Shown here in pieces: positions 1,778 to 22,855 of a stretch of DNA of 22,855 bases (the first letter of the stretch is position 1; every line of letters begins with the position of its first letter). The DNA comes from a virus. Location of the stretch: IMG/VR virus record IMGVR_UViG_3300042324_001299, positions 1 to 22,855 of that record, one strand, 5' to 3'. A model generated the notes under the pieces. That model ran no database searches, had not been told where the DNA came from, and saw nothing but the letters and a program-made list of their open reading frames with translations. Made by a program: the position numbers and the translations under genes.

Positions 1778-3415
1778 CTATCCAAGCCATGCAGAGCGGT
1801 AATACACAGTTAAAGATGCAGAGCTTGTTAGGTCACCTTCATCATAAAAACTAAATACGTTTGCGCCAGGAGCTAAGAGTGTCCACTCTGCAAGAACGTC
1901 GATAAGACTACGCTTGCCGACTACGTCACCGTTAAGTGCGACCTCATGGTCACGCGTATCGACCTCAAGAATATCCGCGCTAGATGTAATCGTCCCGGAG
2001 GCAGCTCCAGATACTACGTTGGTAGCGGTTTTAGCATAGGTAAGCGTCGTAGTTGTTGGCACAGTTAATATCGTAAAGGTACCATTGAATGTAGAATCAA
2101 CACCAGATACAACTACCACGTCGCCTGCGAGAAGCCCGTGCGCAGCCGAGGTTGTTAGCGTTGCAATGTTTCCTGTTAGAGCCTTGTTAGAAACGGTAGG
2201 TGTTAAGACTCCGCGCAGCGCGCCGATGATGGTAATAGACTCGTTGGTTGTCTCGTTAAGGATAGTTGCAGGACCAACGATAGGACCTGTAACCTCGAAC
2301 ACAACGGGTGAGTATGCGTTTCCTGTATTTGTAACCGTACCTGTGCCAGATCCTGCGGTGCCGGAGTCTTCTCCTGCAATCGTCACCTCGCGATAACCTA
2401 GTTCATGTCCTTCGTACCACTCGTACTTAAGAGGGTCTGCTGCACGTAAGCCGATAGAAAACTCTGTGCGTCCACGCGCATTTACAGTTTGAATATCTGG
2501 TTGACCAGACAGGCGAACAAACGAAGCCTTCGTAGGATTTTCATTTGTCTTTAACCATCCGCCTACGTATACAAGATCTGTCTCTTGAATAAGCTTATCT
2601 CTTGACACAGGAATTAGCGATGGGTCTGGAGTAAGAAAGACTCCGTTAAGTGTAATTTGACGAGCCTGGTATCGTCCGCGCACGTCGTAGGATCCGTCTC
2701 CCCAACCGCGAGGAATATCACGTACCTCCGGCTCAGGATGAACCCACCAACCTTCAATATCCGTGCATACCCAGACAACGCCGTTTTCATCTACCGTGTT
2801 AAGAATAAGACTTCCGATTGAAACGTCGGCGTTAAGCTGCATTCCTGTGATCTTAGGAATAGGCAGTGGTGTAAGCCCTAGGTTGACGTACTTGTTTTCA
2901 GTTGCCTGTGTTACGTCGTCAAAATACTCGCCGACGTAGGACGCAGCCTCAAAGATAAAAGCATCTGCGTAAAACTTCTTGCTAACCGTGCCGGCCAACG
3001 GTTGAACAATTGAGATTAGCGCTCCAAGGGCTAATGAAGGCGCTGTCATTACACCCATTAGTCTTATCCAGTCATCGCCTGGAGTGTTCTCTAAACTGAT
3101 TGTGGACGTCGTGGAGATAAGGCTACCACCGCTTAGGGCAGTGTACCAGCCGACGTTAATTTGAAAGGCACCGGTTTCTTCTCCCGCAGGGACCTTTACG
3201 TATCCGGCAACCGCATACGAGGTAGCGGCGGAGACAGAGATGCGAGATGCAATCACCGCACCTGAGTTTACGGCCGCGGCCTTCGTAATTTCTAGGCAGG
3301 AGGAGCCAAAGAACGCGTCGGTGGTAATACGAGTAATCGTTGAAGATCCTGTGGCAGACCAACCTGTTGTGTCTGTCTTAAACGAAGGGTTGACGATTAG
3401 GTTATTTCTCGCCAT
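1778..3415 (-). CDS. Dit-like distal tail protein with N-terminal carbohydrate-binding-like domain
   Basis: This 545-residue protein starts at an ATG one base after the tape measure stop. Residues 1-165 (NLIVNPSF...GW at the start, then Ser/Thr-rich strands, ending FYADAFIFEAASYVGEYFDD) read as a CBM4/9-type jelly roll, a fold that binds sugars. Residues about 175-400 (ITGMQLN, WWVHPEPEVRDIPRGWGDGSYDVRGRY, ITLNGVF, GRTEFSIGLRAADPLKYEW) match distal tail protein, the hub ring between tube and tip. A galectin-like C-terminal domain appears split. Its first half ends near ESITIIGALRG and its second half begins DILEVDTRDHEVALNG. The gap is filled by one copy of the repeated beta domain (about residues 402-479). 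The position between tape measure and Tal supports the call. The probable role is host-surface sugar contact by the baseplate hub. The sugar ligand is unknown. Confidence 0.75.
   Translation of the reverse strand: MARNNLIVNPSFKTDTTGWSATGSSTITRITTDAFFGSSCLEITKAAAVNSGAVIASRISVSAATSYAVAGYVKVPAGEETGAFQINVGWYTALSGGSLISTTSTISLENTPGDDWIRLMGVMTAPSLALGALISIVQPLAGTVSKKFYADAFIFEAASYVGEYFDDVTQATENKYVNLGLTPLPIPKITGMQLNADVSIGSLILNTVDENGVVWVCTDIEGWWVHPEPEVRDIPRGWGDGSYDVRGRYQARQITLNGVFLTPDPSLIPVSRDKLIQETDLVYVGGWLKTNENPTKASFVRLSGQPDIQTVNARGRTEFSIGLRAADPLKYEWYEGHELGYREVTIAGEDSGTAGSGTGTVTNTGNAYSPVVFEVTGPIVGPATILNETTNESITIIGALRGVLTPTVSNKALTGNIATLTTSAAHGLLAGDVVVVSGVDSTFNGTFTILTVPTTTTLTYAKTATNVVSGAASGTITSSADILEVDTRDHEVALNGDVVGKRSLIDVLAEWTLLAPGANVFSFYDEGDLTSSASLTVYYRSAWLG
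1978..2208 (-). repeat. Repeated beta domain, copy 3 (inside Dit-like C-terminal domain)
   Basis: This encodes residues about 402-479 of the Dit-like protein (IATLTTSAAHGLLAGDVVVV, STFNGTFTILTVPTTTTLTY, VSGAASGTI). It separates two halves of what reads as one beta-sandwich domain, so it looks like an in-frame insertion into a surface loop. Confidence 0.75.
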
Positions 3416-8750: not shown

Positions 8751-10118
8751 CTAGTTGTCTAGTGTATATGTAGGTGTCGGTATGGCGCCAAGTCTAAGTG
8801 ATAGGTTACCGGACGCAATATACACAGTTTCAGTTCCCCGTACTGCATAAAGATCCCACGTACCTGGGTCAACAAAGCCTGCGTAGGCATACGCGTCTGC
8901 GTAGGTAACCGATAATGTTAGCGTGTCACGAGACTCGTTTGTAACAAGCGCCGTTCCTGTGTCTGCGCCGTACGCAACGTTGCTTGCAACCTTGACGTAC
9001 ATAAAGGTAGTAGTCGTAGGAACATCCGCAATGTAGTACGAGCCGTTAAAGGTTGCGTTAATGCCTGAGATTGTCACGTAGTCGCCCTCTGAGAACCCGT
9101 GGGCAGTCGACGTGGTAATAATCGCCATGTTATCGGCAAGTTGCTTGTAAGAGACGGACTTAGATATATCATTAGTGATGGTATTGATAGACACGGCGCC
9201 TGAGCCAAGGTCACTTGTCTTAGTTCCGCTGTAGTTGCTGATCTTAAGGTTAGGTATCCATGTATCATCTGTAACTAAGAACGCGGCGTTGATGTAGTCG
9301 ATGTTTACGTCGAGAGTTCCGCCGTCATTTCCCGTGATGACCATGTCAAGAACGCTTGGTGCAAGAGAAAGAGGCTTAGGGACGTGACGACGAGCGCGAG
9401 GAACGTCTGGAGAGAATACGCGTGCCTTTGCACGTGCCTTATCTGGGTTTGAAGACTTAAGGAAGAGATCTACAACGTATAGACCTGTGCGAAGCTCATC
9501 AATGAAGTCCTGGTTGTCAAGAACAGTGTAGGAAACGCCTTGACGAGAAATAGAAGTAACACGCTGAGGTAGCGCGCAGTCATCGTTGCCAGACCAAAGC
9601 TTAATAAACTCTGTAGCAAGGGTACGCGCGGCTGCCTTGCCAGAGGCAGGAGGTGGAGATCCGTATGTGTATGTAACTTCAATGTTGCAAGGTGCCCAGG
9701 CTGTGCCTGAACGTGCTTGAAGTGTAGAATGATCTACTAAATAGTAATTAGAAGGGTCAACTATCGTTCCGGTGCGGTCACGGACGGCGTCGATCTTAAC
9801 TACAGGCCGTCCGCGTAGGCGTAAACGGGTAGATGGCGACATACCGTCTGTTGTAAGCTCGGCGTAGTCGTCAAATTCATCAAAAGGAAGGTTATACATG
9901 TCGCCAGCGACAAGCTCCGGCGTGTAGTTACGAGCAGAGGCGCCTAGACGATACGCACGAGATGCGCACACATATTTTTCTGTAACTGTATTGATTCCAC
10001 CATACTTGCGACCAGACATAGACCATAGAAGTTGAGACGCTACCTTAACGGCCTCGTACGCGTATTCATGATCCGCGTAGATGTCAAGTTCTTCTACTGA
10101 AACCCAAAGGTTTGACAC
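8751..10118 (-). CDS. Head-to-tail adaptor with long C-terminal extension
   Basis: This 455-residue protein starts at GTG with AGGA close upstream. Residues 1-250 match actinophage head-to-tail connectors of the gp6/gp15-like adaptor type. Visible pieces are an N-terminal helical part (YEAVKVASQLLWSMSGRKYGG), a beta segment (RLRGRPVVKIDAVRDRTGTI), YYLVDHSTLQ, VTYTYGSPPPASGKAAARTLATEF, LPQRVTSISRQGVSYTVLD and GLYVVDLFL. Simple adaptors usually end soon after this. Here about 200 residues of beta-rich sequence follow (LDMVITGNDGGTLDVNIDYINAAFL ... LTLSVTYADAYAY, GTWDLYAVRGTETVYIASGN). This extension is interrupted by one copy of the repeated beta domain (about residues 315-393). It probably projects from the neck like a collar or whisker-type decoration; that role is an inference. 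The gene follows a strong hairpin after the tail tube gene. Confidence 0.75.
   Translation of the reverse strand: MSNLWVSVEELDIYADHEYAYEAVKVASQLLWSMSGRKYGGINTVTEKYVCASRAYRLGASARNYTPELVAGDMYNLPFDEFDDYAELTTDGMSPSTRLRLRGRPVVKIDAVRDRTGTIVDPSNYYLVDHSTLQARSGTAWAPCNIEVTYTYGSPPPASGKAAARTLATEFIKLWSGNDDCALPQRVTSISRQGVSYTVLDNQDFIDELRTGLYVVDLFLKSSNPDKARAKARVFSPDVPRARRHVPKPLSLAPSVLDMVITGNDGGTLDVNIDYINAAFLVTDDTWIPNLKISNYSGTKTSDLGSGAVSINTITNDISKSVSYKQLADNMAIITTSTAHGFSEGDYVTISGINATFNGSYYIADVPTTTTFMYVKVASNVAYGADTGTALVTNESRDTLTLSVTYADAYAYAGFVDPGTWDLYAVRGTETVYIASGNLSLRLGAIPTPTYTLDN
8938..9172 (-). repeat. Repeated beta domain, copy 4 (in adaptor C-terminal extension)
   Basis: This encodes residues about 315-393 (MAIITTSTAHGFSEGDYVTI, ATFNGSYYIADVPTTTTFMY, YGADTGTALV). 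It sits between two halves of the extension that read as one Ig-like sandwich (VTDDTWIPNLKI before it, TLTLSVTYADAYAYAGF after it). Confidence 0.75.
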
Positions 10119-10217: not shown

Positions 10218-11267
10218 TTAAGAGGTTGGATCCTCTGTAGACGCAAGGATAAAGTCTACAGCGTTATCAGCGTTATAGTCTTCGTTTCCAGGAACGTTAT
10301 AAGCTGTTGTTGAACCCTGTGAAGTGAAGTCTGTCACCGCACGTGAGTTCGTAGCTACCACAGCCGTTCCAGTATCTGCAGCAGAAGTGATTGTTCCGCT
10401 TGTTGTTGTCGTATATGTGAAGGTTGTTGTTGTTGGTACAGTTGCGATTGTGTATGTACCGTGCAAGGCAGAGTTTCCGTTTGTACCAGCGATTGTTACT
10501 GTATCGCCAACCTCAAAGGTGTGAGCAGTTGAGGTAGTGATTGTAGCAGTTGTTCCTGTACGGTAAGTGTTTGAGATAGTCTTTGTGATCTCTGGGTGCC
10601 ATCTGTAGAAGCCCTTGCGGCCTGTTGGAGCCCAAGCATTACGAGCATATGAGTATGGACGCTCAGTTGCAACTGGGTATTCCCAGCGCTCATCGAGACC
10701 TGATCCGAATTCCGTGTTGCCAAGTCCGTAACCTTCGAATGTGTTTGCAAGCAAACCATTCTCAATTACGCGGTCGCCTGAGAGGCGAAGCTTTGCGTAT
10801 GGGAATACCCAGTGGAAGTAAGGAAGTGATGCTGCCTTCTTTCCGTCAATGATTGCGTGTGACCAGCACTCGATAGCAACACCGTTACCTGCAGGATCAT
10901 CACCTGTTGCAGGAGAAGACCAACCGATAGATTTACGATCTGGTGAAGCGTATGTGCCAAGGTTCTTACGAAGTAATAGACCGCCTGAGATAAGCTGTGT
11001 CAATTCTGGATCTGGCTCGCAGATTGCAAGTTCCATTGTGATACGCTTTAGTGTATCTGGAGACTTGTATGTAACGCAGACAGCGCCGTTAGCGCCTTTT
11101 TCTGTAATTTCATCGCCCTCTTCGTATTCAGGTGTGAATGAAAGGCGCATGAACGCAGATGTTGTGTAGCTATCGCCAGGTTCATTCAGGAGGGTGCCAG
11201 ACGCGTCAAGTCGAGTTACTCGAATTGAGACGCCCTGAATACTGGCGGCGTATTCTTGAGTTGCCAT
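10218..11267 (-). CDS. Major tail (tube) protein with C-terminal repeated domain
   Basis: This 349-residue protein starts at ATG with AAGGAG eleven bases upstream. The N-terminal two thirds carry the actinophage tail tube pattern: GVSIRVTRLDASG, FMRLSFTPEYEEGDEITEKG, NGAVCVTYKSPDTLKRITME, AICEPDPELTQLISGG, then WSHAIIDGKK, PYFHWVFPYAKLRL and FEGYGLGN. It polymerises into the tube around the tape measure. At about residues 226-309 it carries one copy of the repeated beta domain, followed by a short tail ending NEDYNADNAVDFILAS, so the domain would be displayed along the whole tube surface. It lies before the adaptor and terminator genes rather than just before the chaperones, which is unusual. 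No other gene in the window qualifies as tube protein. Confidence 0.85.
   Translation of the reverse strand: MATQEYAASIQGVSIRVTRLDASGTLLNEPGDSYTTSAFMRLSFTPEYEEGDEITEKGANGAVCVTYKSPDTLKRITMELAICEPDPELTQLISGGLLLRKNLGTYASPDRKSIGWSSPATGDDPAGNGVAIECWSHAIIDGKKAASLPYFHWVFPYAKLRLSGDRVIENGLLANTFEGYGLGNTEFGSGLDERWEYPVATERPYSYARNAWAPTGRKGFYRWHPEITKTISNTYRTGTTATITTSTAHTFEVGDTVTIAGTNGNSALHGTYTIATVPTTTTFTYTTTTSGTITSAADTGTAVVATNSRAVTDFTSQGSTTAYNVPGNEDYNADNAVDFILASTEDPTS
10340..10588 (-). repeat. Repeated beta domain, copy 5 (in tail tube protein)
   Basis: This encodes residues about 226-309 of the tube protein (TATITTSTAHTFEVGDTVTI, LHGTYTIATVPTTTTFTY, TSAADTGTAVV). It is Thr-rich and is the copy nearest the apparent consensus. 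It begins right after the host motif GFYRWHPEI. Confidence 0.75.
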
Positions 11268-11310: not shown

Positions 11311-12411
11311 CTATACCGTTAGATCGAGCTTGATTGCGAGATGAACCGATGGATCAAAGTAGGCAATCGCCGAGCGAGTTGCCTTGATCTTCATATCGTT
11401 CCTATTCCCTGACACGTCATAGCCCTGTGCTAGACTGTCATTTACCACTTCTGACTTGCCTAGGTGCGCAAACACCTTGCCAGTAGCGTAAATCCATTTA
11501 GTGTCGTCGTCGCCTTGCATCTGAACGTATCCAGGGTAGGCGGTTGCTGCTTGATTAGTAGCTGTAATATCAGCGGTAAATGTCGTTGTGTTCGTTACTG
11601 CTTTTACAGTCCATGATCCGTCAAAGCTCGTGCTGTTTGACGAGCTTGTAATGGAGAATATTTCTCCAGCCTTCATGTGATGAGTGCCTGTAGTGACGAT
11701 AGTGGCAACGTTTGACGTTACCGCAATAGTGCTAATTGCTCGGTGTGGACCATCTCCGCTGTAGCCAGAACCTATCACTACAGGTGTCCCTGCGAAGGTT
11801 TGGATATGAGATTTACCTTCAACGTGCAAAAATGCTTGGTTGTTACTCGCAATAAGAGTAAAAGCATCACGTGATAAGTGGATAACCCCGTTCTCGCCTG
11901 CTGGAGACACCTCTCCAACGTAGTGCTCTAAAAGTGCAAGTCCACGCTTAGGCGAGTATGCGGCTCCGTGCGCTGCTTCAGAGTGAATAACTGTTCCGCT
12001 TGTGCTTGTTAAAAAAGTGTTTGGAAGTGACTGGGCTAGCGCAATCTCTCCGTTCCATAATTCGGACTCAAGTGCCTTCTGTGACACACCTTCGAGCTGC
12101 TTGAGAACACGAGCAAATCGGTCCTCTCCAGCGAGGCCAAATGTTGAGCGCTGATCTTCTACTTCAATAAAAATTGGCTTGAGCTCTTTGTAAAGACTTG
12201 AGCTAGGGCTATCTGATACAACATAGCTTGTTGTAGATGTCTCGTCCCAGTTGCGAACATAGTTTGGCTCAGTGATATATTCCTGAGAGAAACCACGTGT
12301 CCACTCGTTTTCATTTGCGTGGTCTTCGGAAAGAGATGGCTTAGCTACGGCATATAGACCAAACTCGATTGGTTCAATATCCGCTGCTGGATGGATTCCT
12401 TTGAATGCCAT
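11311..12411 (-). CDS. Second capsid-like (HK97-fold-like) or minor head protein with inserted beta domain
   Basis: This 366-residue protein starts at ATG with two overlapping AGGA sites. It follows the major capsid gene. Its sequence reads like a compact HK97-fold shell protein. An N-terminal arm (MAFKGIHPAADIEPIEFGLY) is followed by a stretch with DRFARVLKQLEGVSQKALESELWNGEIAL. A P-domain helix region follows (KRGLALLEHYVGE, NGVIHLSRDAFTLIA), then FAGTPVVIGSGY, IYATGKVFAHLGK, and a closing TRSAIAYFDPSVHLAIKLDL strand. The GTPVVIGSGY...IYATG...SAIAYFDP order is common in capsid A/P domains. One copy of the repeated beta domain interrupts it (about residues 223-295). It could be a pentamer/vertex subunit, as in actinophages with separate hexamer and pentamer proteins, or another minor head protein. 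The fold call is pattern-based and unconfirmed. Confidence 0.5.
   Translation of the reverse strand: MAFKGIHPAADIEPIEFGLYAVAKPSLSEDHANENEWTRGFSQEYITEPNYVRNWDETSTTSYVVSDSPSSSLYKELKPIFIEVEDQRSTFGLAGEDRFARVLKQLEGVSQKALESELWNGEIALAQSLPNTFLTSTSGTVIHSEAAHGAAYSPKRGLALLEHYVGEVSPAGENGVIHLSRDAFTLIASNNQAFLHVEGKSHIQTFAGTPVVIGSGYSGDGPHRAISTIAVTSNVATIVTTGTHHMKAGEIFSITSSSNSTSFDGSWTVKAVTNTTTFTADITATNQAATAYPGYVQMQGDDDTKWIYATGKVFAHLGKSEVVNDSLAQGYDVSGNRNDMKIKATRSAIAYFDPSVHLAIKLDLTV
11527..11743 (-). repeat. Repeated beta domain, copy 6 (in second capsid-like protein)
   Basis: This encodes residues about 223-295 (VATIVTTGTHHMKAGEIFSI, TSFDGSWTVKAVTNTTTFTA). It is the most diverged full-length copy. It is bounded by host motifs VVIGSGYSGDGP and DDTKWIYATGKV, which would be close together in an uninterrupted capsid fold. 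Confidence 0.65.
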
Positions 12412-12498: not shown

Positions 12499-14541
12499 TT
12501 AGTATTCGACTGTAGCTGCTGTTGCGCCACCAAGTAGGTCGCGTAGTGCAGAAGCTGTACCGTTTACGTTGATTGTTGATGTCACCTTGAGAGATTCAAC
12601 GCCAACCTTTGCAACGTTCTCGAAGGTTTCAACGAACATCTTGTAGTCGTTTGTACCAACGAGTGTTGAGTCACGGATAATTCCGAGATCCATTGTGCCG
12701 CCGTCAAGGAACAAGAATGAACCTTCAGCGAACATGTACCAGATGAATGTATCTGGGAACTCGTTCATTGCGCCACCATCTTGAGCAGCAAATGCTGCTG
12801 TTCCACCAGCGATGTCGAGTGAGTAGCATACGTTGATGCCACGTGCTGCAATGTAGCCTTCGATCTCTGCATATGCATTGAGAGTTGAATCTCCAGGCAT
12901 TGATAGAGTTAAGTCAGCAGCCATTGCGTCCTTGATCCACGCTGGCATGATAACGCGAAGTGGCGCATCTGCATCTAGGCGGTGACGTGAACGGTATGCT
13001 GTTGCAGCGCGGCCAAGCTGGACTAGGAAGTCACGAGCAAGACCAACAACAGATGTTGATGTAACAGCTGTTGATGCTGTGCCGATCTTTGTTAGAAGGT
13101 TGCCTTCAGCCTCGCGTGCATGCTGGATGAGACCAAGCTCGTTGTGACGAGCGATCAATTCAGGATATGCACGTGTTAGAAGGTTACCAAACTGTAGCTG
13201 TAGTGTTACAGCGTCTGTTGAGACTGTTGTCTCAGATGCTGCTGCTACAGTCAAGCTTAGCTTAGCTGATGGTGATGGTGTTTCTGCTGAATCGTTTGCA
13301 GCAGTCCAGATGCCCACGGCTGAGCCGTAGTCAGATAGAACTGGTGGAACGATGTAGCGGATACCGCCACGATCTGCTTGGAAACGAGGTAGGCAATCGC
13401 GAACTGGGCGTACTGCTGTGCCAAGACCGAAGATGTCGTACTTAGTTTCGAATGGAGCCTGGTGTCCGCCAGATGCAACAAGTGCCTCTGGGCCGACTAC
13501 TGACTGGATCTTGTTCCAGTTAGCTTCTGCATCCTGTGTAAGGGTGCGCTCTTCTGGGAACTTTGTGGTGACAGAAGCAACGATGTGCTGCTCTCCATCT
13601 CCACCATTTACACGACGTAGTGTGTGGATACGCTTTGCCATTGCTTCGGCAACTCCACTCATATCGTCAATTGAACTGCCAGCTGTGTAGCCAGGAATGT
13701 CAGCGCCAGCAGTGATTGCCACTGCAGCAGCTGATACCTGAGCAACAGGGCGGCGATCAGCTGGAGCTTCGATTAAAGCGTCCAACTCGTTGTTTGCGGC
13801 GGCGGTCACTGGTGCCTCCTGATCTTCCTGCGCGATGGGCGCTTCGATTGTTTCTGGTTCTGTTGATGGTACCTCTTCTTCAACTGACGCTACAACTGCT
13901 TCTTCAGCAGGTGCTTCTGCGACAACTTCAGGTTCGGTCGATTCTGTTAGTACTTCTTCTACTACTGAAAGCTCAGCTTGTGGAGTTGCCTCGACTGTTG
14001 CTTCTGCAGCAGCTTCGATCTCTACAGCAGCTTCAGCTGCTGGTTCGATCTCAGTTGCAACAACTTCTTCTGGAGCTGAAAGTTCAGCTACAGGCTCTGT
14101 TGTCTCTGTTGTTTCTGTTGGTTCTACTGAGGTTGAAAGCTCAGATCCTGTTTCCACAGATGTTGACGCTGCCATAGGCATTTCCTTTTTCTCTTCTTCA
14201 GGAGCCTCTTCAGGCTTCTCTTCAGTTTCAGCAGGAGCTTCTTCAGCAGGCTTATCACCTTCTGGAGCATCTTCTGCAGGAGCATCTTCTTGGCCTTTAA
14301 CACGCATTGCTGCTTCCGCAGCACGTGCTGCAAGCTCTTCAGCTGCAGCTGCGCGACCCTTGATTTCACCGCGAACGGTGTCAAGCATATCGGCTAGTGA
14401 TGTCATGGCGTCTACTGTCTGAGGAGTAGGATCTTCCTTCTCAACCGTTTCAAACTCATTGACGATGGCTGTCTGTAGGTCAGCGAGTTGTTCCTCGTTG
14501 AGTTCAGTCAGGGTGTCAAGCATTGTTTTAATTTGGTCCAC
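12499..14541 (-). CDS. Major capsid protein with N-terminal scaffold-like domain
   Basis: This 680-residue protein starts at GTG (MDQIKTMLDT) with AGAGGAGGGA five bases upstream. Residues 1-90 form a charged helical coiled coil (LNEEQLADLQTAIVNEFETVEKED, AAAAEELAARAAEAAMRVKG). Residues 90-245 are a low-complexity Glu/Ala/Pro/Thr segment. From about 250 the shell domain begins: VAQVSAAAVAI, IPGYTAGSSIDDM, FPEERTLTQDAE. Later come RDCLPRFQADRGGIRYIVPP, LIARHNELGLIQHAREAEGN, LRVIMPAWIKDAMAADL and DGGTMDLGIIRDSTLVGTND. The protein resembles actinophage HK97-fold capsids, where an N-terminal delta domain scaffolds assembly and is then cut off by the neighbouring protease. The acidic segment is far longer than the 100-residue HK97 delta domain. 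No separate scaffold gene is seen, so it probably serves that role. A hairpin follows the gene. Confidence 0.85.
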   Translation of the reverse strand: MDQIKTMLDTLTELNEEQLADLQTAIVNEFETVEKEDPTPQTVDAMTSLADMLDTVRGEIKGRAAAAEELAARAAEAAMRVKGQEDAPAEDAPEGDKPAEEAPAETEEKPEEAPEEEKKEMPMAASTSVETGSELSTSVEPTETTETTEPVAELSAPEEVVATEIEPAAEAAVEIEAAAEATVEATPQAELSVVEEVLTESTEPEVVAEAPAEEAVVASVEEEVPSTEPETIEAPIAQEDQEAPVTAAANNELDALIEAPADRRPVAQVSAAAVAITAGADIPGYTAGSSIDDMSGVAEAMAKRIHTLRRVNGGDGEQHIVASVTTKFPEERTLTQDAEANWNKIQSVVGPEALVASGGHQAPFETKYDIFGLGTAVRPVRDCLPRFQADRGGIRYIVPPVLSDYGSAVGIWTAANDSAETPSPSAKLSLTVAAASETTVSTDAVTLQLQFGNLLTRAYPELIARHNELGLIQHAREAEGNLLTKIGTASTAVTSTSVVGLARDFLVQLGRAATAYRSRHRLDADAPLRVIMPAWIKDAMAADLTLSMPGDSTLNAYAEIEGYIAARGINVCYSLDIAGGTAAFAAQDGGAMNEFPDTFIWYMFAEGSFLFLDGGTMDLGIIRDSTLVGTNDYKMFVETFENVAKVGVESLKVTSTINVNGTASALRDLLGGATAATVEY

Positions 14542-14668: not shown

Positions 14669-14674
14669 CTAGGT
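14641..14674 (-). promoter_or_regulatory. Possible promoter: TATAAT flanked by 7-base inverted repeats
   Basis: On the minus strand TATAAT (14664-14659) lies between perfect inverted arms ACCTAGA (14641-14647) and TCTAGGT (14668-14674). The left arm includes the protease stop codon. The -35 region is poor (near TTCTTCG). The structure could be a late promoter with an operator, or an RNA stem. Confidence 0.3.
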
Positions 14675-17600
14675 TAATAGTCGAAGAAGTTTACTTAACT
14701 CAGAGGAAATCTCCTGTTGAGTATAGTAGTCTCCACCCGACATAAAGGACCGCAAGCCCACGGTTGCCTCTTCAGCGTCTTTTGCACCGATCTTCTCTGT
14801 CACTCGTGACAGCATATCGTCCATAAGATTTTTTAAAGCTGGAGGAAGATCGCTGTAGCGAACCTTCTCCGTATCACTCCCAAACGGTAGGGGAAGGTTA
14901 GCAATAACCTCACCTAGGGCTTTTGCCGAGGAGCGAACATTTTCTATTGCCTGTGGGTTTAAGGCTCCGGCATCTAGTCTGTCTACGATACCGATAACAT
15001 CGTTGGCAGCCTTAGCCGCGTCTTGGTAGTTACCGACCTCGTTGAGCTCTTCTGCCTCAGATACCTTTTGTACTACGTCCTGCAGCCCAGCGTCACCAAG
15101 ATCCTGCTTGATACGCGCTAGAACTACACGAAACTTGCCTTTTTCATCGCGCGGTTGAGTGTCAGGGGTGTATTTACCCTGCTCTTGAGTCTCAACCGCT
15201 AATGTTTTTCCCATATCATCGCCTAGCGCAGCGGAAAGCTCTGCCAAACGTGAACGAAGATCACTAACCTCTTCATCTACCATAGAGAGTGATTTCCAAT
15301 TTTCTGGGATGAGATCTGGGCGATCAAACTTACGAGCCATCTTTTTAATGTGGCGACGAACGGCTGCTCGCTTGCCAGGCTTAGAACGACCGTACGCTTG
15401 GATTGAATCCTTTAGGGAATCAAGGTTTGTAATTGGGTAAGAACCGTCTGGAAGAGCCTTGCCTTCCTTGGCTAGCTTTTGACGCTTTTCGCGTGAGATA
15501 TATCCAAAGTTGTCATCATACTTAGGAGCACCGTAGATACGGGCGTAGGCTTCAGCTGCCTTATTTGAAAGCTGAGCTTCCTTCTCTTCACGAACTTCAG
15601 TAAACCTTGCCTTTGCGACATCCGCTTTTGCAGAAAGTTGTGCATTTTCTAACTGCTCAAGTTTTTCAATTCTAGAGCTTAATTCTGTGACCGGATCTGA
15701 CTTCATGCGTGCAAGTACCTGGGCACCTGCCGCAACTAATGCCATAACCGCGCCTGAGGCTACACGAGCCCGTGCGATAGGGAACCCTGGAACGTTTACC
15801 TGACATACGGCAACGAGCTCAAGTTGTCCCTTGATTGGACGCCAGTCGCCGGAAGGTGCAGACGCACGAAGTGCACGAACCTGCTCTGGAGACGTGCCTG
15901 GACGAAGAGCACCGGAGACCCAGATACCGAAGGCATCTTCTCCAGCGTGAACATCTGCGATTGCAGAGCCTGTATCGTCATAGTGACGAGCAGCCTCGGA
16001 TGCAGATGCTTCTAGTGAGGCATGGCCTCCTGCTAATGTTAATTGACCTACAGGAATATCTGTATTGTCGTCTGTACGAACAACTCCTGTGTGGAAGTAG
16101 GCGTACTTGCTCTTTGAGCGCGGTGGACGGGTTCCAAAGGACATTCCGATGTGGTCAACGTGCCATGCGGCAATGTGCCCGAACACGCGTCCGTCTTCAT
16201 CTACCGTCAAAGGCGTTGCCTGACGTAGTTGAGGGTTGTCAAACCATGAGCGCGGAGGCGTGACTGGTATAGATCCAGCAACTAGGCCACACGCTACGAT
16301 AGCTGACGCTTCTACCGGATCCATTTCATCTGCGTATACTCCGTCTGGAATAACCACGATGTCCTCCTGTTTCTTGTCATTATTGACAAGGTAGATTTGG
16401 CACTCTTGAAATGCCGGTTTAGGCACTAGAGTTACCGCCATAACACGCGCATGAGTAATCATGAGCTTGTCCGTTCCAATTTTACCAGCATCTTCATCTT
16501 CAGATAATTCAACTGTGTGCTGGCTTGCCTCAAATTGATCCAAGTCAGCGGAAACACCGCGGATAAAGCCTTCACGAACGAGGCGCTCGGCTTCCTGCCC
16601 GTAGGCACCAGAGTCAAAGACTCCGGTGGCATTTCCAATACCATTTTCAGTGCGTTCCATAAAGTCAATGCGGCCAACTACTACCGAACCGTTATGTCCT
16701 TCGTCTGTCTTGATCTGCCACATCAAAGGAAGTGGAAGCTCGCGAATTTCAATCGCGCCCTTCTTGAATTTACGACCGTCACCTGATTCAAGATCTTCAG
16801 GGATAACAAGAGGGATTCTAAATGCTCCGCCGTCTACTGGGATAATCTCTGCGCCTGCAGTGATAACCCGCGAACGAGCATCGGCTGCTCTCGCAGATAG
16901 AGTTGAAGCTGCTAATACCTCTTCATATGAGTTGATACCGTCGATGGCAAACGCTCCTTTGTTCATTCCTGGGTTATTTTTATCTCCAGGCCACATACCT
17001 GTTACTTCGTGATGACGTAGGGAACAATATCCCTTAGCTCGTGGACCCATATACTTCTTTAGGTTTCGGTAGCAACGTGTCCAATCGCCAGGTGTGTTCC
17101 AGCGAATCTTTAGTGCGCCCTTGCCTACTGTCCAATAGCGACGTAGGGTTTCTGCGTTTCCACGGTTTCTGTCTGCACCACCTGCAGCGGTCATCACCAT
17201 GACGTTTCCGTTAGCGCCCCATAGAACTGTAATAATATCTGAGTCACTGTATCCAGAAGATACTACAGGAACGATACCGTCAACCTGCTCGATGACACTC
17301 TTCAATGACTCGCCGTCTAGTGGAACTACCGGAGGAGGAGTTGGAGAGTTAAGATCTGCTAGGATAGCTTCTTCGCGCATCCACTTACTATCCTTGCGGA
17401 TGTACGTCATAGGATCTGTAGAGGTAGAGCTTGCAGGTACAAGAGAGACGAGCTCTAGAACCGCACCTGGGTCGTCTTGAGAGACAATAGCAAAGAACAA
17501 AGGTTGAACATCACTGGTAGCAGGTGTTACTTCCTTAGACTTACCAGCTTTTTCCGCGCTACCGCGAATGATTGGCTGGTAGTAGGACTTGTTTGGGTAA

Positions 17601-19270
17601 TAAAACTTACCGTCAGACCCTTGAACCTTCTTGTTTAGGAATGGCTCTAGTAACGGATGTTTGTACGGATCAAACTCTAGCTTAGCTCCTGTTAGCTCTT
17701 CAAGCTCAGTTAGGTACGCTGGCTTTTCAATATTAGGAATTTGATCTTTTCCTGTAATTGTTTTAATAGGCTTAGGTGCATCAGGAGTAGAAACCTTTGC
17801 TGGGTTAAAAGCATCTCGCTGTGACTTAACCCAGGCAGGCCAGTCGCCCATCATCTTTCCAAGATCTTCAGGTGATAGTGCTGGAAGAGTTCCAGGTATT
17901 CTTGCGTTAGGACGGTCAATAGGAACTCTTGGCTCACCAAGAATTCCTGATGTATCTAATCCTTCAAATTCAATTGGTGCCTGCGTTGAAGACGTAGGTG
18001 AGGCGGTAGCCTCTGACTCTGTTGCATTAGCTGGGACATCAACTACACTGCCAGAGTCAAGACGAACACGCACGCTTTGTTTTGCAGGGTCAAGGGCAAT
18101 AATGTTTCCTGTGCCTTTTTCAGTGTCTCCACCGATAACTACACGTGAGCCAACCTTTGAAAACTTGCCTGTCTTATCACGTACTTGCTTATCTGCATTT
18201 TGTGCTCGCTCTTCAGGAGTGTAGTTTCCATCTCCTGGAACCGGAGCTTCTGCCGCGGCGGTAACAACTCTATCAATGAACGTGTAGTCAAGCTCAGACG
18301 CAGCCTTTAGAATCATGTCTGCTTCATCGTAGTTAATATCAAACAACGAGATGTAGTGCCCTGGGTTTTCCTGTAGGCAGGCAGAGATAAAGAGCGCAGA
18401 CTCTGCGTCGATCTCAACGTGGGTTTTTTCAACTGTATCATCTGGATTGTCAAGTGCTAGGTCATAACTTGCAAAGTCAGAGTTTGTCTCCGGCATAGAG
18501 TGCCAAAATCCTGCATCCCACACTGAAACGTTATACGCTTCGTCTACCTTGTAGAGACGGTCAATTCCTGAGCCGTCCATACGCATACGGGCAAGAAATT
18601 CAACTGCTCCATTATCAGTGGCTGCCGCTAACTTAAACGCATCAACGTCCGCGTCATAGCTAGTGTCTGTGGCATAGGTGTATTGATCTTCCTCGTAGCC
18701 ACGATCTGTGTATCCGTCAGCTCTTAATGCTTTTTTATTTTCTCGCTCGACGATAGCCTGCGCCCATTTCCATCCCGCGTCTCCGCCCCAGAGAGCCCAC
18801 GCAATACGCCCACGAGAAGGAAAGCCCTTCTCGCCTGGCTGATAGCCCGTCGCCTTCTTATCAATCTCATGACGAGGAAAATACTTAGCAATATGGCGAA
18901 CTTTTTCAATTCCAATTTGGCCACCCTTCGCAAGTGTACGTGCAGAGTTGACACCTACAGGTGTTCCTCCACGGTCGTGTTCTTTACGCCACTCTAGACC
19001 GCGCTTAGCTTCCTCCTGGGCGCCTTTAGGAATGGTGTACATGCGACCTGCGGAAGAAACAATGCTTACGTCTAGTGTAGTCAACGCAGCCTGGGCAAGC
19101 TCTGCGGTTGACTCATCAAACTCGATGCTGTCGTTATACCACTTAGCAGAAGCAATAAGCGCTGAAAGAGATCCGGAGTCTACTACCGTATTGTCATCGA
19201 CATCGATGATGACTCCGCTGTTCTCGTTTGAGAACAGAACGTGCGAGCCATTCTTGCCTACGATATGCAT
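14669..19270 (-). CDS. Giant multidomain prohead (capsid maturation) protease
   Basis: This protein has 1533 residues from the ATG at 19270 (MHIVGKNGSHVLFS), one base after the upstream stop and preceded by AAGGGAAGAAG. An earlier in-frame ATG at 19291 lacks a ribosome site. The S78-like protease core lies at about residues 830-950. It has H in DEGHNGSVVVGRID (about 858) and S in RGVSADLD (about 906), then ARVMAVTLVPKPAF. Flanking modules, in order, are a helical block with KGGQIGIEKVRHIAKYFPRH and GRIAWALWGGDAGWKWA (about 103-170); an SH3/KOW-like barrel (VGSRVVIGGD, about 371-413); a Cys/His block with DWTRCYRNLKKYMGPRA and YCSLRHHEVTGMWPGD (about 728-762); and a post-protease block with GALRPGTSPEQVRALRA. 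Toward the C-terminus come LPDGSYPITNLDSLKDSI and KYTPDTQPRDEKGKFRVV. Usual prohead proteases have 150-300 residues. It should cut the capsid scaffold domain. Confidence 0.85.
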   Translation of the reverse strand: MHIVGKNGSHVLFSNENSGVIIDVDDNTVVDSGSLSALIASAKWYNDSIEFDESTAELAQAALTTLDVSIVSSAGRMYTIPKGAQEEAKRGLEWRKEHDRGGTPVGVNSARTLAKGGQIGIEKVRHIAKYFPRHEIDKKATGYQPGEKGFPSRGRIAWALWGGDAGWKWAQAIVERENKKALRADGYTDRGYEEDQYTYATDTSYDADVDAFKLAAATDNGAVEFLARMRMDGSGIDRLYKVDEAYNVSVWDAGFWHSMPETNSDFASYDLALDNPDDTVEKTHVEIDAESALFISACLQENPGHYISLFDINYDEADMILKAASELDYTFIDRVVTAAAEAPVPGDGNYTPEERAQNADKQVRDKTGKFSKVGSRVVIGGDTEKGTGNIIALDPAKQSVRVRLDSGSVVDVPANATESEATASPTSSTQAPIEFEGLDTSGILGEPRVPIDRPNARIPGTLPALSPEDLGKMMGDWPAWVKSQRDAFNPAKVSTPDAPKPIKTITGKDQIPNIEKPAYLTELEELTGAKLEFDPYKHPLLEPFLNKKVQGSDGKFYYPNKSYYQPIIRGSAEKAGKSKEVTPATSDVQPLFFAIVSQDDPGAVLELVSLVPASSTSTDPMTYIRKDSKWMREEAILADLNSPTPPPVVPLDGESLKSVIEQVDGIVPVVSSGYSDSDIITVLWGANGNVMVMTAAGGADRNRGNAETLRRYWTVGKGALKIRWNTPGDWTRCYRNLKKYMGPRAKGYCSLRHHEVTGMWPGDKNNPGMNKGAFAIDGINSYEEVLAASTLSARAADARSRVITAGAEIIPVDGGAFRIPLVIPEDLESGDGRKFKKGAIEIRELPLPLMWQIKTDEGHNGSVVVGRIDFMERTENGIGNATGVFDSGAYGQEAERLVREGFIRGVSADLDQFEASQHTVELSEDEDAGKIGTDKLMITHARVMAVTLVPKPAFQECQIYLVNNDKKQEDIVVIPDGVYADEMDPVEASAIVACGLVAGSIPVTPPRSWFDNPQLRQATPLTVDEDGRVFGHIAAWHVDHIGMSFGTRPPRSKSKYAYFHTGVVRTDDNTDIPVGQLTLAGGHASLEASASEAARHYDDTGSAIADVHAGEDAFGIWVSGALRPGTSPEQVRALRASAPSGDWRPIKGQLELVAVCQVNVPGFPIARARVASGAVMALVAAGAQVLARMKSDPVTELSSRIEKLEQLENAQLSAKADVAKARFTEVREEKEAQLSNKAAEAYARIYGAPKYDDNFGYISREKRQKLAKEGKALPDGSYPITNLDSLKDSIQAYGRSKPGKRAAVRRHIKKMARKFDRPDLIPENWKSLSMVDEEVSDLRSRLAELSAALGDDMGKTLAVETQEQGKYTPDTQPRDEKGKFRVVLARIKQDLGDAGLQDVVQKVSEAEELNEVGNYQDAAKAANDVIGIVDRLDAGALNPQAIENVRSSAKALGEVIANLPLPFGSDTEKVRYSDLPPALKNLMDDMLSRVTEKIGAKDAEEATVGLRSFMSGGDYYTQQEISSELSKLLRLLT

Positions 19271-19271
19271 A

Positions 19272-19835
19272 TTACTTCTTCCCTTGTTCATCGTTATTGG
19301 CTGGCTGCTCGTCTAGATAATCTAACAGCTCTGCATAAGGTCCATTAGGATCAACCGAGCCTAAAGCTGCAAATATAAGCTCTGTCACGCCAGACGCCGT
19401 AACTTCTTGGTCCGGGTCATCTGACATGAGCTGCTCGTAGAGCTCTGGGAAGTCTACAAAAACCTGCTCGATGTCTAGAGATCTACGAGTAAGCTCGGCA
19501 GACTTACTAGACATCTTCTCTAAGTCTTCATTCTTTTTATTTTTCTCCATCTTAAGTTTTTCACTTTTGATGGCGATATTCTCGTTAGGCTCTTCAAAGG
19601 GAGCAGAGAAATAGTAGTTACTTAGGTTATACTTAGCCAGGTTAAGGTAGTCATCTACTGTAAAAGACTTCTTATCTTTTTTAACAGCATCTAAAACAAG
19701 TTGAACTCGCTTACCTGAGTTAAAAATAGCTTCCTTGTCGTTTAGGAAGATATACTTAAATCCTTTGTCGGTTGCCACAACGGAAAAGGCATGCGTCTTG
19801 TCGTTCATATCAAATGCGCGGATCACTTTTATCAT
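19272..19835 (-). CDS. Protein of unknown function between kinase-like protein and protease
   Basis: This 187-residue protein starts at ATG with AGGGGAA nine bases upstream, overlapping the upstream stop region. I do not recognise the family. Residues 1-75 look like a small alpha/beta domain (MIKVIRAFDM, HAFSVVATDKGFKYIFLNDK, RVQLVLDAVKK). Residues 90-130 are a highly charged Lys/Glu coiled coil (KSEKLKMEKNKKNEDLEKMS). The C-terminus is acidic (FPELYEQLMSDDPDQE, LLDYLDEQ). There is no signal peptide or membrane segment. The position between the kinase-like protein and the prohead protease, with an 11-base gap and a 1-base gap, implies co-translation and a head-assembly or regulatory role. A small scaffold, a chaperone or a partner of the kinase-like protein are options, none proven. 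Confidence 0.6.
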   Translation of the reverse strand: MIKVIRAFDMNDKTHAFSVVATDKGFKYIFLNDKEAIFNSGKRVQLVLDAVKKDKKSFTVDDYLNLAKYNLSNYYFSAPFEEPNENIAIKSEKLKMEKNKKNEDLEKMSSKSAELTRRSLDIEQVFVDFPELYEQLMSDDPDQEVTASGVTELIFAALGSVDPNGPYAELLDYLDEQPANNDEQGKK

Positions 19836-19846
19836 TGCGTATTCCC

Positions 19847-22800
19847 CTATCGTTGAGACCAGTAGCTGGGTTTAAGAACATTTAATAAAGTCTTATAGCC
19901 TTCACCGTTAGGCTTAAGAAGAGAATCAATACGCTCTTGGATCTTTTGACGGTACGCGTCTAGGCTTCCAAAATTAGAAATTATAAGATCAAGTTCTTTT
20001 CCTGTAGGAAGGTTTGCTGGATTGCTTAGTGCTTCCATCATATTATTTGCTTCATTTCTAAACAGAGCAAGAAGCTCTTGTTGTTTAAGACGCTTGGTTA
20101 GAACTGGCATTGCCATTCCGTAAAGATTATCGTTACCTTCGTTAAACACTTGCAACACCGTGTCCTGTATTCTTTCAACATCAGGACTAAATGATGATAG
20201 CGCATGGTCGATAGGCAGTATTCTGATTTTACCCGTGTCTGTTCCATCGATAGCAATTAGGAGATTTCCATTATGGCGATCTACATTGCTGATGATAAGA
20301 TCGACTAGCATCACCCTAATAGCATCCTCTGGAGTATGTAGAAGATCCATAAAGTTCTGTGGGTTAACCTTTACGGTTGTGCCGTCTGGCAGATCTATAG
20401 ACATTTTGTAGAGTGCATTGGATGCTGTCATAGGCTCACCAAGAAGAGGCACTCCTACGCCTGCGCGCTGCATAACGAGAACCTCTGGGTCTACGTTGCT
20501 GACGCGTGTTTCATACCCTGCAACAACTCCTGATGCACGTAGCATAGTGTCTGCCTGTATCTCGGCGCCTGGCCCGTTGATGCTATACATTGAAGCATAT
20601 GCATCCTTCTTCAAAAAGAATATTTGACCGGAGTCGTTATGCGTCACCATATACGTATCGTTAACACCTGATTCATAGACGCCAAGTTCTTTTATGGTAA
20701 ACCCTGGAACATTATTTTTTCTAACGTCATCCATTGAAACGTCTAGAAGCTGGTTGCCAACCCCAAAGTCACTTGAAGCTGATAGAGGATTGTCCGCCTT
20801 AAACTCTGCATCGAGAGCTATACGCAACTTAATAATATCTTCCAGGCTTAGTGTTCTGTCTTCGCCTTTCATAAGCTGAGAAGCGGTGAAGCGATTTAAC
20901 GCGGTCTTTGCGCCAGGAGACAGGACTGCCAGTGAGCGGTTGCTTCTAAGAACATCACGGATGTAGTCAATATACGGTCTAAGCTCTGGGTTTGCGTCTG
21001 CAAACTCGTTACTGTTAGCCTTAAGAACAAGTTCACGGCTAACGTTAGGACGATTTACATTGCCTGCTATTCTCTTTCGTGCATTACGCATCTGATCATA
21101 GTTTACAGCTTGGCGCTGCTCGATAGCTGCCGGATCAAGGTTCTTTACTCCATACCAATCGAGGGCAGACATTGCACGCTTTCCTGCCCACGATGAACCT
21201 TTTGAAGCCCCTTGCGATGAGCCGATAAGAGCAATTTCAAGAGGCGTAGGCACGGTACCTGGAGTGTATTTACCTGTAGGGTTGAGCTCCGCCATCTTCT
21301 GTTGCATATCTTTAATAATTTTCTTTTCTTCTTCTGTAGTTCTTGCATCATTTAGCATCTTACGAAGAATAGCTGGAACTCTGCTAGCCTGGCTAGGTCC
21401 GTCCCAGATAAAGCCGTTAAGCGCCCAGACAAGTCCACCCTGCCAACGCGCTCCAGCAGCAGCATGTACCTTTATCTTCTTAAAACCGTTTGCTATGTAC
21501 CAGTCTTCCATATATCTGTTATAAGCTGCTGCAAACCCAGACTGTTTTTTACTGTTGTCTTCAATGACAAGAATATCATTTGACACAGACCATTCTTGCA
21601 CTGTAATGCCGTCTGGCTGTTCTACGTTGGCACGTCTAAGTGAGCGAGATCCTTGACCTATATCTGTTCCATTACTGTCTAATATTCTAAATGAGATACC
21701 GACACTTACTTCACCAGAGTTGTACATAGAAAAACTAACGTTTGCTTCTTCTTTAATAGTATAATTGCTACTTCCAAGTGCTACACCTGCACGAATACCA
21801 AATGTATCGCGCACAAGCTTCTTTAACTGTGTGTAGTATAAAGAAACTTCAGCATCAGCCTTGTCTCGCTCGTCGGCAGTCGATGCGTTGCGTGCTGCAG
21901 TTCTTGCTTCTTCTGTTTTTACAACTAGATCTTCTATATTTTTAATAGTAGCGCGGTCACGCCCAGCTCGAGCAATTTCAGGAGCACGCAGACCCCACGC
22001 TGCGTAATCAGATTGCTTAGCGTCAGGGTTGGTAAATTCAACAAGATCTTGCGGAGTGTCTGCTAGCATAACTCCAGGAATGTCTCCGTTACCTGCTATA
22101 ACTGGTATACCTTGAGGCGCTGGCTCGTTAAGACGTACCGCTGGATCTTGAGGGACTGGGTTACGACGAGCTGGTGGAAGCTGTCCTGGCCCTTCTCCTT
22201 GAGCAACAGGAGCTCCAGCGTCAATTCCAAAAATTTGACGGGCAGAGCGAACAGCAGTCGTGCCGTCGTCAAAACGAATACGCGCATAGTCTGCATCACG
22301 GCCAGTTTTTGTGTCAATGTTTTGTACCGCAACGATTGTCCCAGCGCGCCCGTCGGATAGAGCTTGAATACGTGAGCCTGCCCCAACCGCGACGCGGTTA
22401 GAGTCAAGAATGATGTTGTTAGCGCTATATCCATTTTCACGAGGACCTGGGTAGTTAAACTGTGGAGTTTCAGCTTCTGGAGAGTCAATAGCAACTTCTG
22501 CAGAAGGCGTTGGGCTTACCGGTGACTCGGACTGCGGAGTTTCTTGGCCAAGTAGTCCAGGGCCAGCAACTTCAGTGATTGCCTCGATGATCTCTGCATC
22601 ATCTGCCTCGGACCAATCAAGAAGTCCTTTTTCATCTATAGCATCACGAATCTTGTCAGCAGTATCATCGTCAAGAGTATTTCCAGTCTGCTCTACAAGA
22701 TCTTTAATCATCTGTGAGTGTGCCTGAAGTCTTGGTGCTTTAGAATCTGGCTCGCTCATATCATTTGATTCTTTCTTAAGATCTAAAAGAATCTGGTTGG

Positions 22801-22855
22801 TGTTAATGTCTTGATATTGAATGGCATCACGCATTGCCTCGATAGGAACCTCGAC
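19847..22855 (-). CDS. Multidomain polyvalent-type protein with GNAT-like and PI3/4-kinase/HipA-like domains; 5' end probably outside window
   Basis: The frame is open to the right edge. The first in-window ATG is at 22834 (995 residues), but it lacks a ribosome site and seven upstream codons are open, so the start may lie outside. Residues about 1-130 are acidic and linker-like, and about 150-205 form an SH3/KOW-like barrel (GSRIQALSDGRAGTIVAV). Residues about 345-490 resemble a GNAT-type fold: YMEDWYIANGFKKIKVHA, then GGLVWALNGFIWDG. The kinase lies at about 715-900. It has a glycine-loop analogue YESGVNDTYMV (about 724), lysine in FFLKKD (about 741), glutamate in GAEIQAD (about 757), catalytic loop SNVDRHNGNLL (about 848) and metal motif PIDHALSSF (about 876). 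These match the PI3/4-kinase-like and HipA-like protein kinases. All key residues look intact. The protein may be packaged and act on host targets at entry; this is an inference. Confidence 0.65.
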   Translation of the reverse strand, partial: VEVPIEAMRDAIQYQDINTNQILLDLKKESNDMSEPDSKAPRLQAHSQMIKDLVEQTGNTLDDDTADKIRDAIDEKGLLDWSEADDAEIIEAITEVAGPGLLGQETPQSESPVSPTPSAEVAIDSPEAETPQFNYPGPRENGYSANNIILDSNRVAVGAGSRIQALSDGRAGTIVAVQNIDTKTGRDADYARIRFDDGTTAVRSARQIFGIDAGAPVAQGEGPGQLPPARRNPVPQDPAVRLNEPAPQGIPVIAGNGDIPGVMLADTPQDLVEFTNPDAKQSDYAAWGLRAPEIARAGRDRATIKNIEDLVVKTEEARTAARNASTADERDKADAEVSLYYTQLKKLVRDTFGIRAGVALGSSNYTIKEEANVSFSMYNSGEVSVGISFRILDSNGTDIGQGSRSLRRANVEQPDGITVQEWSVSNDILVIEDNSKKQSGFAAAYNRYMEDWYIANGFKKIKVHAAAGARWQGGLVWALNGFIWDGPSQASRVPAILRKMLNDARTTEEEKKIIKDMQQKMAELNPTGKYTPGTVPTPLEIALIGSSQGASKGSSWAGKRAMSALDWYGVKNLDPAAIEQRQAVNYDQMRNARKRIAGNVNRPNVSRELVLKANSNEFADANPELRPYIDYIRDVLRSNRSLAVLSPGAKTALNRFTASQLMKGEDRTLSLEDIIKLRIALDAEFKADNPLSASSDFGVGNQLLDVSMDDVRKNNVPGFTIKELGVYESGVNDTYMVTHNDSGQIFFLKKDAYASMYSINGPGAEIQADTMLRASGVVAGYETRVSNVDPEVLVMQRAGVGVPLLGEPMTASNALYKMSIDLPDGTTVKVNPQNFMDLLHTPEDAIRVMLVDLIISNVDRHNGNLLIAIDGTDTGKIRILPIDHALSSFSPDVERIQDTVLQVFNEGNDNLYGMAMPVLTKRLKQQELLALFRNEANNMMEALSNPANLPTGKELDLIISNFGSLDAYRQKIQERIDSLLKPNGEGYKTLLNVLKPSYWSQR

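What the first reader, a model, noticed from the sequence alone, without database searches (positions are those of the whole stretch)
19847..22855. Kinase plus GNAT-like multidomain protein in a head-gene cluster
An apparently intact PI3/4-kinase/HipA-like active site (lysine, glutamate, D-R-H-N-G-N loop, I-D-H metal motif) and a GNAT-like segment sit in a protein adjacent to the prohead protease. Late head-operon location suggests it is built into or packaged in the capsid. Iyer, Aravind and colleagues described 'polyvalent proteins' with effector domains delivered with phage DNA; this could be a new architecture of that type acting on host translation or defence.
Basis: partly seen in the sequence, partly recalled or inferred. 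Interest (0 to 1): 0.78.

Follow-up and report, generated by a model that had tools for sequence, protein, structure and literature searches.

The report
Giant phage protein with kinase payload
A freshwater actinobacteria-type phage carries, among its head-building genes, one enormous (about 2,700-residue) protein ending in an acetyltransferase-like domain and an intact kinase, and related phages keep the front of that protein while swapping the enzyme at the back, which suggests a built-in delivery arm whose enzymes are injected into the host with the DNA (delivery itself is not yet shown).

Summary
The ORF is open at the window edge: it is the C-terminal ~1,000 residues of a 2,721-residue protein (complete in L004, 100% DNA identity over 3.5 kb). 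Its kinase is real: the AlphaFold model (pTM 0.84) matches CotH, CtkA, Vps34 and HipA, and the catalytic K, E, D-R-H, N and metal D are invariant in 26 clusters down to 30% identity. The GNAT-like part has a GNAT fold (AAC(2'), GmvT, TacT), but the first glycine of its acetyl-CoA loop is lost in the whole clade.

The new part is context. In every locus checked the gene lies between portal and capsid protease. 242 relatives share an N-terminal 'RDxxGRWxEMG' domain; 26 complete proteins pair it with GNAT+kinase, others with a different kinase, ADP-ribosyltransferase, DUF3626 or a helicase. The tag inside this domain occurs only three times in a complete 129-kb relative, always in slot or head-protease proteins. 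A kinase-like+ART protein of a Yersinia phage is annotated 'phage particle associated'.

Best reading: a capsid-packaged, injected polyvalent effector with exchangeable payload; delivery and target are inferred. New variant of a known kind.

The parts
19847..22855 (-). C-terminal ~1,000 residues of a giant (about 2,700 aa) protein; N-terminus lies outside the window
   Evidence: open at window edge; full-length homologue L004:729-8894, 100% DNA identity over 3,476 bp
22235..22420 (-). small conserved segment, residues 139-200 (SH3/KOW-like by eye)
   Evidence: HMM from 17 relatives recovers it here only; fold not tested
21119..21844 (-). GNAT-like module, residues 331-572
   Evidence: AF2 pLDDT 84, pTM 0.73; Foldseek top hits nearly all GNATs; homologous to the C-terminus of Microbacterium phage Jera gp5
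20765..21118 (-). conserved linker domain between GNAT-like and kinase, residues 573-690, unknown function
   Evidence: conserved in all 12 aligned relatives
19850..20764 (-). CotH/CtkA/PI3K/HipA-like kinase domain, residues 691-995
   Evidence: AF2 pLDDT 82.5, pTM 0.84; Foldseek CotH 2.9e-5, CtkA 3.6e-5, Vps34 1.1e-4
20609..20611 (-). predicted ATP-binding lysine K742
   Evidence: invariant
20561..20563 (-). predicted glutamate E758
   Evidence: invariant
20264..20281 (-). catalytic loop D852-R-H-N-G-N857
   Evidence: D, R, H and the second N invariant in 26 clusters
20204..20212 (-). metal-binding I875-D-H877
   Evidence: D invariant in 26 clusters; H is N in one subclade
19272..19835 (-). 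187-aa conserved gene following the giant
   Evidence: present after the giant in nearly all loci where the contig reaches it
14669..19291 (-). 1,540-aa head-protease fusion protein
   Evidence: phrog_18402 head maturation protease 3e-61, phrog_859 3.9e-92; overlaps the 187-aa gene by 20 bp
18161..18181 (-). first RDxxGKF tag in the protease protein (residues 371-377)
15131..15151 (-). second RDxxGKF tag in the protease protein (residues 1381-1387)
12499..14541 (-). major capsid protein
   Evidence: phrog_777 1.4e-79; 72% identical to DSL-LC01 MCP

Best explanation
It is the payload end of a polyvalent-type protein built into the phage head. The N-terminal RDxxGRWxEMG domain docks the protein to the procapsid (portal or protease-scaffold complex) during head assembly; the long, linker-rich protein passes through the tail with the DNA; in the newly infected cell the C-terminal GNAT-like domain and the kinase fold and modify host proteins. 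Shown by sequence: domain anatomy, intact kinase site, fixed place in the head operon, shared N-terminal domain with exchangeable C-termini. Inferred: packaging, ejection, kinase activity, protein (rather than lipid) substrate, and a host target, most likely the translation or transcription apparatus by analogy with HipA, TacT and T7 kinase.
For: Kinase fold and invariant catalytic residues. GNAT fold. Order TerL-portal-DUF5824 gene-giant-187aa-protease (and MCP where the contig reaches it) in the loci checked, with coupled or nearly touching ORFs. N-terminal domain encoded on 242 viral stretches, attached to GNAT+kinase (26 complete proteins), to a Pumpernickel kinase missing from its relative Big4, ADP-ribosyltransferase in L133, DUF3626 in DSL-LC01, UvrD helicase in Mimi. 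Tag motif found only 3 times in the DSL-LC01 genome, all in slot or protease proteins, 0.0 expected in shuffled ORFs. GNAT unit also C-terminal on a Phage_min_cap2 protein in Jera; PI3/4-like kinase fused to MuF in L057 and beside portal, MuF, Zeta-toxin and InPase proteins in L056. A kinase-like + ART protein of Yersinia phage fHe-Yen8-01 is annotated 'phage particle associated protein'.
Against: No virion proteomics for this phage or its close relatives. The Yersinia kinase-like family (A7) is not demonstrably homologous to this one by profile comparison. The GNAT-like domain has lost the first Gly of Q/RxxGxG/A in all clade members, so it may be inactive or bind something else. Some relatives carry no recognisable effector (Big4). 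A structural role for the whole protein is not excluded.
Confidence: 0.6

Rival explanations
1. A late-expressed, non-packaged enzyme that alters the host during virion assembly, for example to block superinfection.
For: Benler et al. 2021 (PMC8008677) found a HipA-family kinase between portal and MCP in five 'Gratiaviridae' phages and argued for a late anti-superinfection role.
Against: Does not explain the N-terminal domain and tag shared with head-protease proteins, nor fusions of such kinases and GNATs to MuF/minor-capsid domains.
Confidence: 0.18
2. The giant is mainly a structural or assembly protein (internal core or scaffold), and the kinase acts on phage head proteins, as CotH does on spore-coat proteins.
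For: Best fold match is CotH, a structural-protein kinase; the gene lies between portal and protease-scaffold and a protein of this kind is present in the slot of all relatives inspected.
Against: Exchange for ART, helicase or DUF3626 and absence of the kinase in Big4 are unlike an essential assembly enzyme.
Confidence: 0.17
3. The kinase-like domain is a phosphoinositide or other small-molecule kinase, or a non-canonical kinase-fold transferase (for example AMPylation as in SelO), rather than a protein kinase. This concerns the chemistry only and is compatible with delivery.
For: The best curated family hit is PI3_PI4_kinase.
Against: Structural neighbours include protein kinases CotH, CtkA and HipA, the first two at better E-values than the lipid kinases; phosphoinositides are not general bacterial lipids (own knowledge).
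Confidence: 0.15

Closest known systems
Polyvalent proteins of phages (Iyer et al. 2017, PMC5512222)
   Same: large multidomain proteins, unrelated enzymatic domains (kinase, GNAT, ART, helicase), encoded with head/portal genes
   Different: kinase class differs (CotH/PI3K/HipA-like versus Ser/Thr/Tyr kinases lacking the C-terminal subdomain); a conserved N-terminal RDxxGRWxEMG domain with no Pfam or PHROG match
MuF polymorphic toxins (Jamet et al. 2017, PMC5576092)
   Same: N-terminal head-associated module with exchangeable C-terminal enzymes; relatives of the GNAT unit and kinase occur on minor-capsid/MuF proteins in Jera and L057
   Different: no MuF domain in the giant; no immunity gene seen; far larger
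HipA-family kinase of 'Gratiaviridae' gut phages (PMC8008677)
   Same: kinase of related fold encoded between portal and MCP
   Different: there not described as part of a giant multidomain protein, and read as anti-superinfection; no sequence comparison was made here
CotH / CtkA / HipA / PI3K kinases (PDB 5jda, 3akl, 3dnt, 2x6h)
   Same: fold and catalytic residue pattern
   Different: 11-13% identity; no sequence-level membership in any of them
Actinomycetia phage DSL-LC01 3,289-aa protein, Pumpernickel gp82, Big4 gp74, Mimi gp77
   Same: same slot and same N-terminal domain
   Different: different or no C-terminal enzyme

Membership tests
Polyvalent protein (phage type) | several unrelated domains in one polypeptide | tested here: met
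   N-terminal domain, GNAT-like, kinase
Polyvalent protein (phage type) | encoded with portal-terminase head genes | tested here: met
   ten loci checked
Polyvalent protein (phage type) | packaged in virion and injected | not testable with these tools
   only an analogue (fHe-Yen8-01) is annotated as particle associated
Polyvalent protein (phage type) | kinase of the Ser/Thr/Tyr group lacking the C-terminal subdomain (a domain listed by Iyer et al., not required of every member) | tested here: not met
   fold search gives CotH/CtkA/PI3K first; model has a helical part beyond the active site
MuF polymorphic toxin | N-terminal MuF domain | tested here: not met
   no MuF hit in full-length proteins
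MuF polymorphic toxin | variable C-terminal effector | tested here: met
PI3/PI4-kinase PF00454 | score above curated cut-off | tested here: inconclusive
   below in window, above in L055
HipA kinase | HipA_C / HipA_2 match | tested here: not met
   one of 12 members at E 0.07 only
CotH kinase | CotH family sequence match | tested here: not met
   no CotH hit in Pfam; fold similarity only
GNAT acetyltransferase | GNAT fold | tested here: met
   (best E 7.3e-4, modest TM-scores, but top list dominated by GNATs)
GNAT acetyltransferase | Q/RxxGxG/A acetyl-CoA motif | tested here: not met
   KK[SK]GF-type loop in clade members; Jera keeps RGQGF
Any of the kinases | phosphotransfer activity | not testable with these tools
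   needs biochemistry

The most novel reading that the evidence does not exclude
The RDxxG[RK][FW] tag domain is a general capsid-loading signal of actinobacterial phages: it recruits proteins to the procapsid through the head-protease complex, so an enzyme fused behind it is delivered into the next host cell. The window's kinase/GNAT is one of a family of interchangeable cargoes.
Probability: 0.3. Interest if true: 0.85.

Novelty: new variant of a known kind. Interest (0 to 1): 0.62.

Why it matters
It identifies a conserved N-terminal module without a Pfam or PHROG name in a large group of actinobacterial and freshwater phages that carries different enzymes in one fixed position between portal and capsid protease, including a kinase class not listed for phage polyvalent proteins. 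Cultivated members (Pumpernickel, Big4, Mimi) make packaging, the tag's role and kinase function directly testable.

Tried and rejected
PDB sequence searches with the single protein and with the kinase and GNAT profiles gave nothing meaningful. NCBIfam: only TIGR03843 (SCO1664 family), best E 0.0027, for 5 of 12 members. A scan of viral contigs with the Pumpernickel kinase found no relative. A genome-contig scan with the N-terminal domain found no prophage or host, so the host is inferred only from DSL-LC01 and other actinophages. Profile comparison of this kinase with the Sixama/Yersinia kinase-like family was weak, so I do not claim homology; Foldseek suggests a shared fold. The idea that the SH3/KOW-like segment is also in the protease protein was not supported by an HMM search. 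The conserved C-terminus of the DSL-LC01/L117/L133 giants (H...GGLLSTxxRW) looks ART-like by eye but has no Pfam hit, so it is left unassigned. The Mimi C-terminal zincin (HEFGH) is read by eye only. The reading as a stand-alone 995-aa protein was rejected.

Full report
OBSERVATION. The window is a fragment of a tailed-phage genome (22,855 bp virus record). All genes assigned here lie on the minus strand: giant protein, 187-aa protein, 1,540-aa head-protease fusion, major capsid protein, neck and tail genes including a 1,152-aa tape-measure candidate. The finding's ORF is open at the window edge. In IMG/VR three near relatives contain it complete: 2,495, 2,721 and 2,927 aa (L003, L004, L005); L004 is identical to the window over 3,476 bp.

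KINASE. PF00454 and phrog_3162 give weak hits around residues 835-904. A 12-member alignment gave a confident AlphaFold2 model (pLDDT 82.5, pTM 0.84) whose nearest solved structures are Bacillus CotH, Helicobacter CtkA, Vps34 and, lower, HipA. Among 26 clusters below 90% identity, as low as 30% identical, the few invariant columns include the predicted ATP lysine, the paired glutamate, D-R-H, the second Asn and the metal Asp. A decayed enzyme would not be expected to keep exactly these. The window's kinase is therefore most likely under selection as an enzyme.

GNAT-LIKE DOMAIN. Residues 331-572 model well (pLDDT 84) and match GNATs: AAC(2'), GmvT, TacT, SpeG, NatA (best E 7e-4). The same unit ends a Phage_min_cap2 protein of Microbacterium phage Jera. 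Jera keeps RGQGF; window-clade members have KK[SK]GF-like loops, so catalysis is doubtful.

THE SLOT. In the cultivated or assembled relatives DSL-LC01, Big4, Pumpernickel, Mimi and Sixama the interval between portal and capsid protease holds one or two very large proteins. All-against-all comparison shows a shared N-terminal domain in the first four plus the window clade, with unrelated C-termini: a PF00454-like kinase in Pumpernickel only (its relative Big4 ends where the kinase begins), UvrD helicase in Mimi; Sixama has an ADP-ribosyltransferase protein in the slot, but no shared N-terminus was detected there. A profile of the N-terminal domain found 242 relatives among viral contigs, 80 kept. 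Among complete, non-redundant proteins 26 have N-terminal domain + GNAT + kinase, 1 has kinase without GNAT, and 12 have neither (a few of the 12 may be protease-side proteins with weaker matches). The same domain also heads a DUF3626 protein in DSL-LC01 and an ART protein in L133. Gene order TerL-portal-DUF5824 gene-giant-187aa-protease holds in the ten loci inspected, as far as each contig reaches; in the two of them that lack GNAT+kinase, the 187-aa gene was not recognised.

TAG. The core of the N-terminal domain is Q[WR]RDxxG[RK][WF]xxMG. RDxxG[RK][FWY] occurs three times in the ORFs of the 129-kb DSL-LC01 genome: the DUF3626 protein, the giant, and the protein preceding the protease; shuffled ORFs give 0.0. 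In the window clade it is in the giant and twice in the protease fusion. In an unrelated phage (L056) KYSEDQARDxHGRF-type tags recur between domains of three adjacent proteins: an ART-like/kinase protein, a Zeta_toxin/2H/CTP_transf/InPase protein, and a MuF protein. This suggests, but does not prove, a capsid-loading or processing signal.

MODULARITY. L003 and L004 differ mainly by a ~226-aa insertion next to a Pro-rich linker; L005 carries a 139-aa module twice (1 nt difference in 417).

VIRION EVIDENCE. None for this clade. A second kinase-like family (A7), next to portal in Gordonia phages (Sixama gp73, Forza, GodonK) and inside the DSL-LC01 giant, is also in a 2,146-aa Yersinia phage protein with C-terminal ART, annotated in its record as 'phage particle associated protein'. 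It resembles this kinase by fold (Sixama gp73) but not convincingly by profile; the support is by analogy.

KNOWN. Polyvalent proteins (PMC5512222) and MuF toxins (PMC5576092) are the nearest concepts. A HipA-family kinase between portal and MCP has been reported in gut phages and explained as late anti-superinfection (PMC8008677). I found no paper in the held library linking PI3K/CotH-like kinases to polyvalent proteins, which is not proof of absence.

VERDICT. The kinase is real and conserved; the GNAT fold is real but may be inactive; a virion-delivered effector with exchangeable payload is the best-supported mechanism (0.6), with delivery, activity and target inferred.

Noticed in passing
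window 2-1732, 1778-3415, 8751-10118, 10218-11267, 11311-12411 (-): The same Ig-like-looking repeat (ITTSTAHGFxxGDxVxISGxxxxFNGxYxIxxVPTTTTFTY, by eye) sits in five tail/neck/decoration proteins.
   Followed up: no
L056:8387-18002: Phage with portal, ART-like+kinase, Zeta_toxin+2H+CTP_transf+InPase and MuF proteins in a row, domains separated by KYSEDQARDxHGRF or KYSEDQARVPAGxPGGGQF tags.
   Followed up: partly
L057:1-1797: MuF head protein fused to a PI3/4-type kinase (PF04233 and PF00454).
   Followed up: partly
L006:19823-20524; L010:7111-7770; L139:4971-5624: A second kinase-like family (WD...DN, RVDxGG motifs) beside portal in Gordonia phages, inside the DSL-LC01 giant, and fused to ART in a particle-associated Yersinia phage protein; no Pfam family.
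   Followed up: partly
C-termini of L117:9461-17095, L133:9449-19825, L006:14801-24670: Conserved C-terminal domain (H...GGLLSTxxRW) replacing GNAT+kinase in one subclade; ART-like by eye, no Pfam match.
   Followed up: no
L005 residues 792-1068: A 139-aa module is duplicated in tandem with 1 nt difference in 417, flanked by GPDEPPTPPSG linkers; recent module duplication or assembly artefact.
   Followed up: partly
window 14669-19291: phrog_859 'portal protein' is matched only in the part that other families call head maturation protease; the PHROG name looks misleading here.
   Followed up: no
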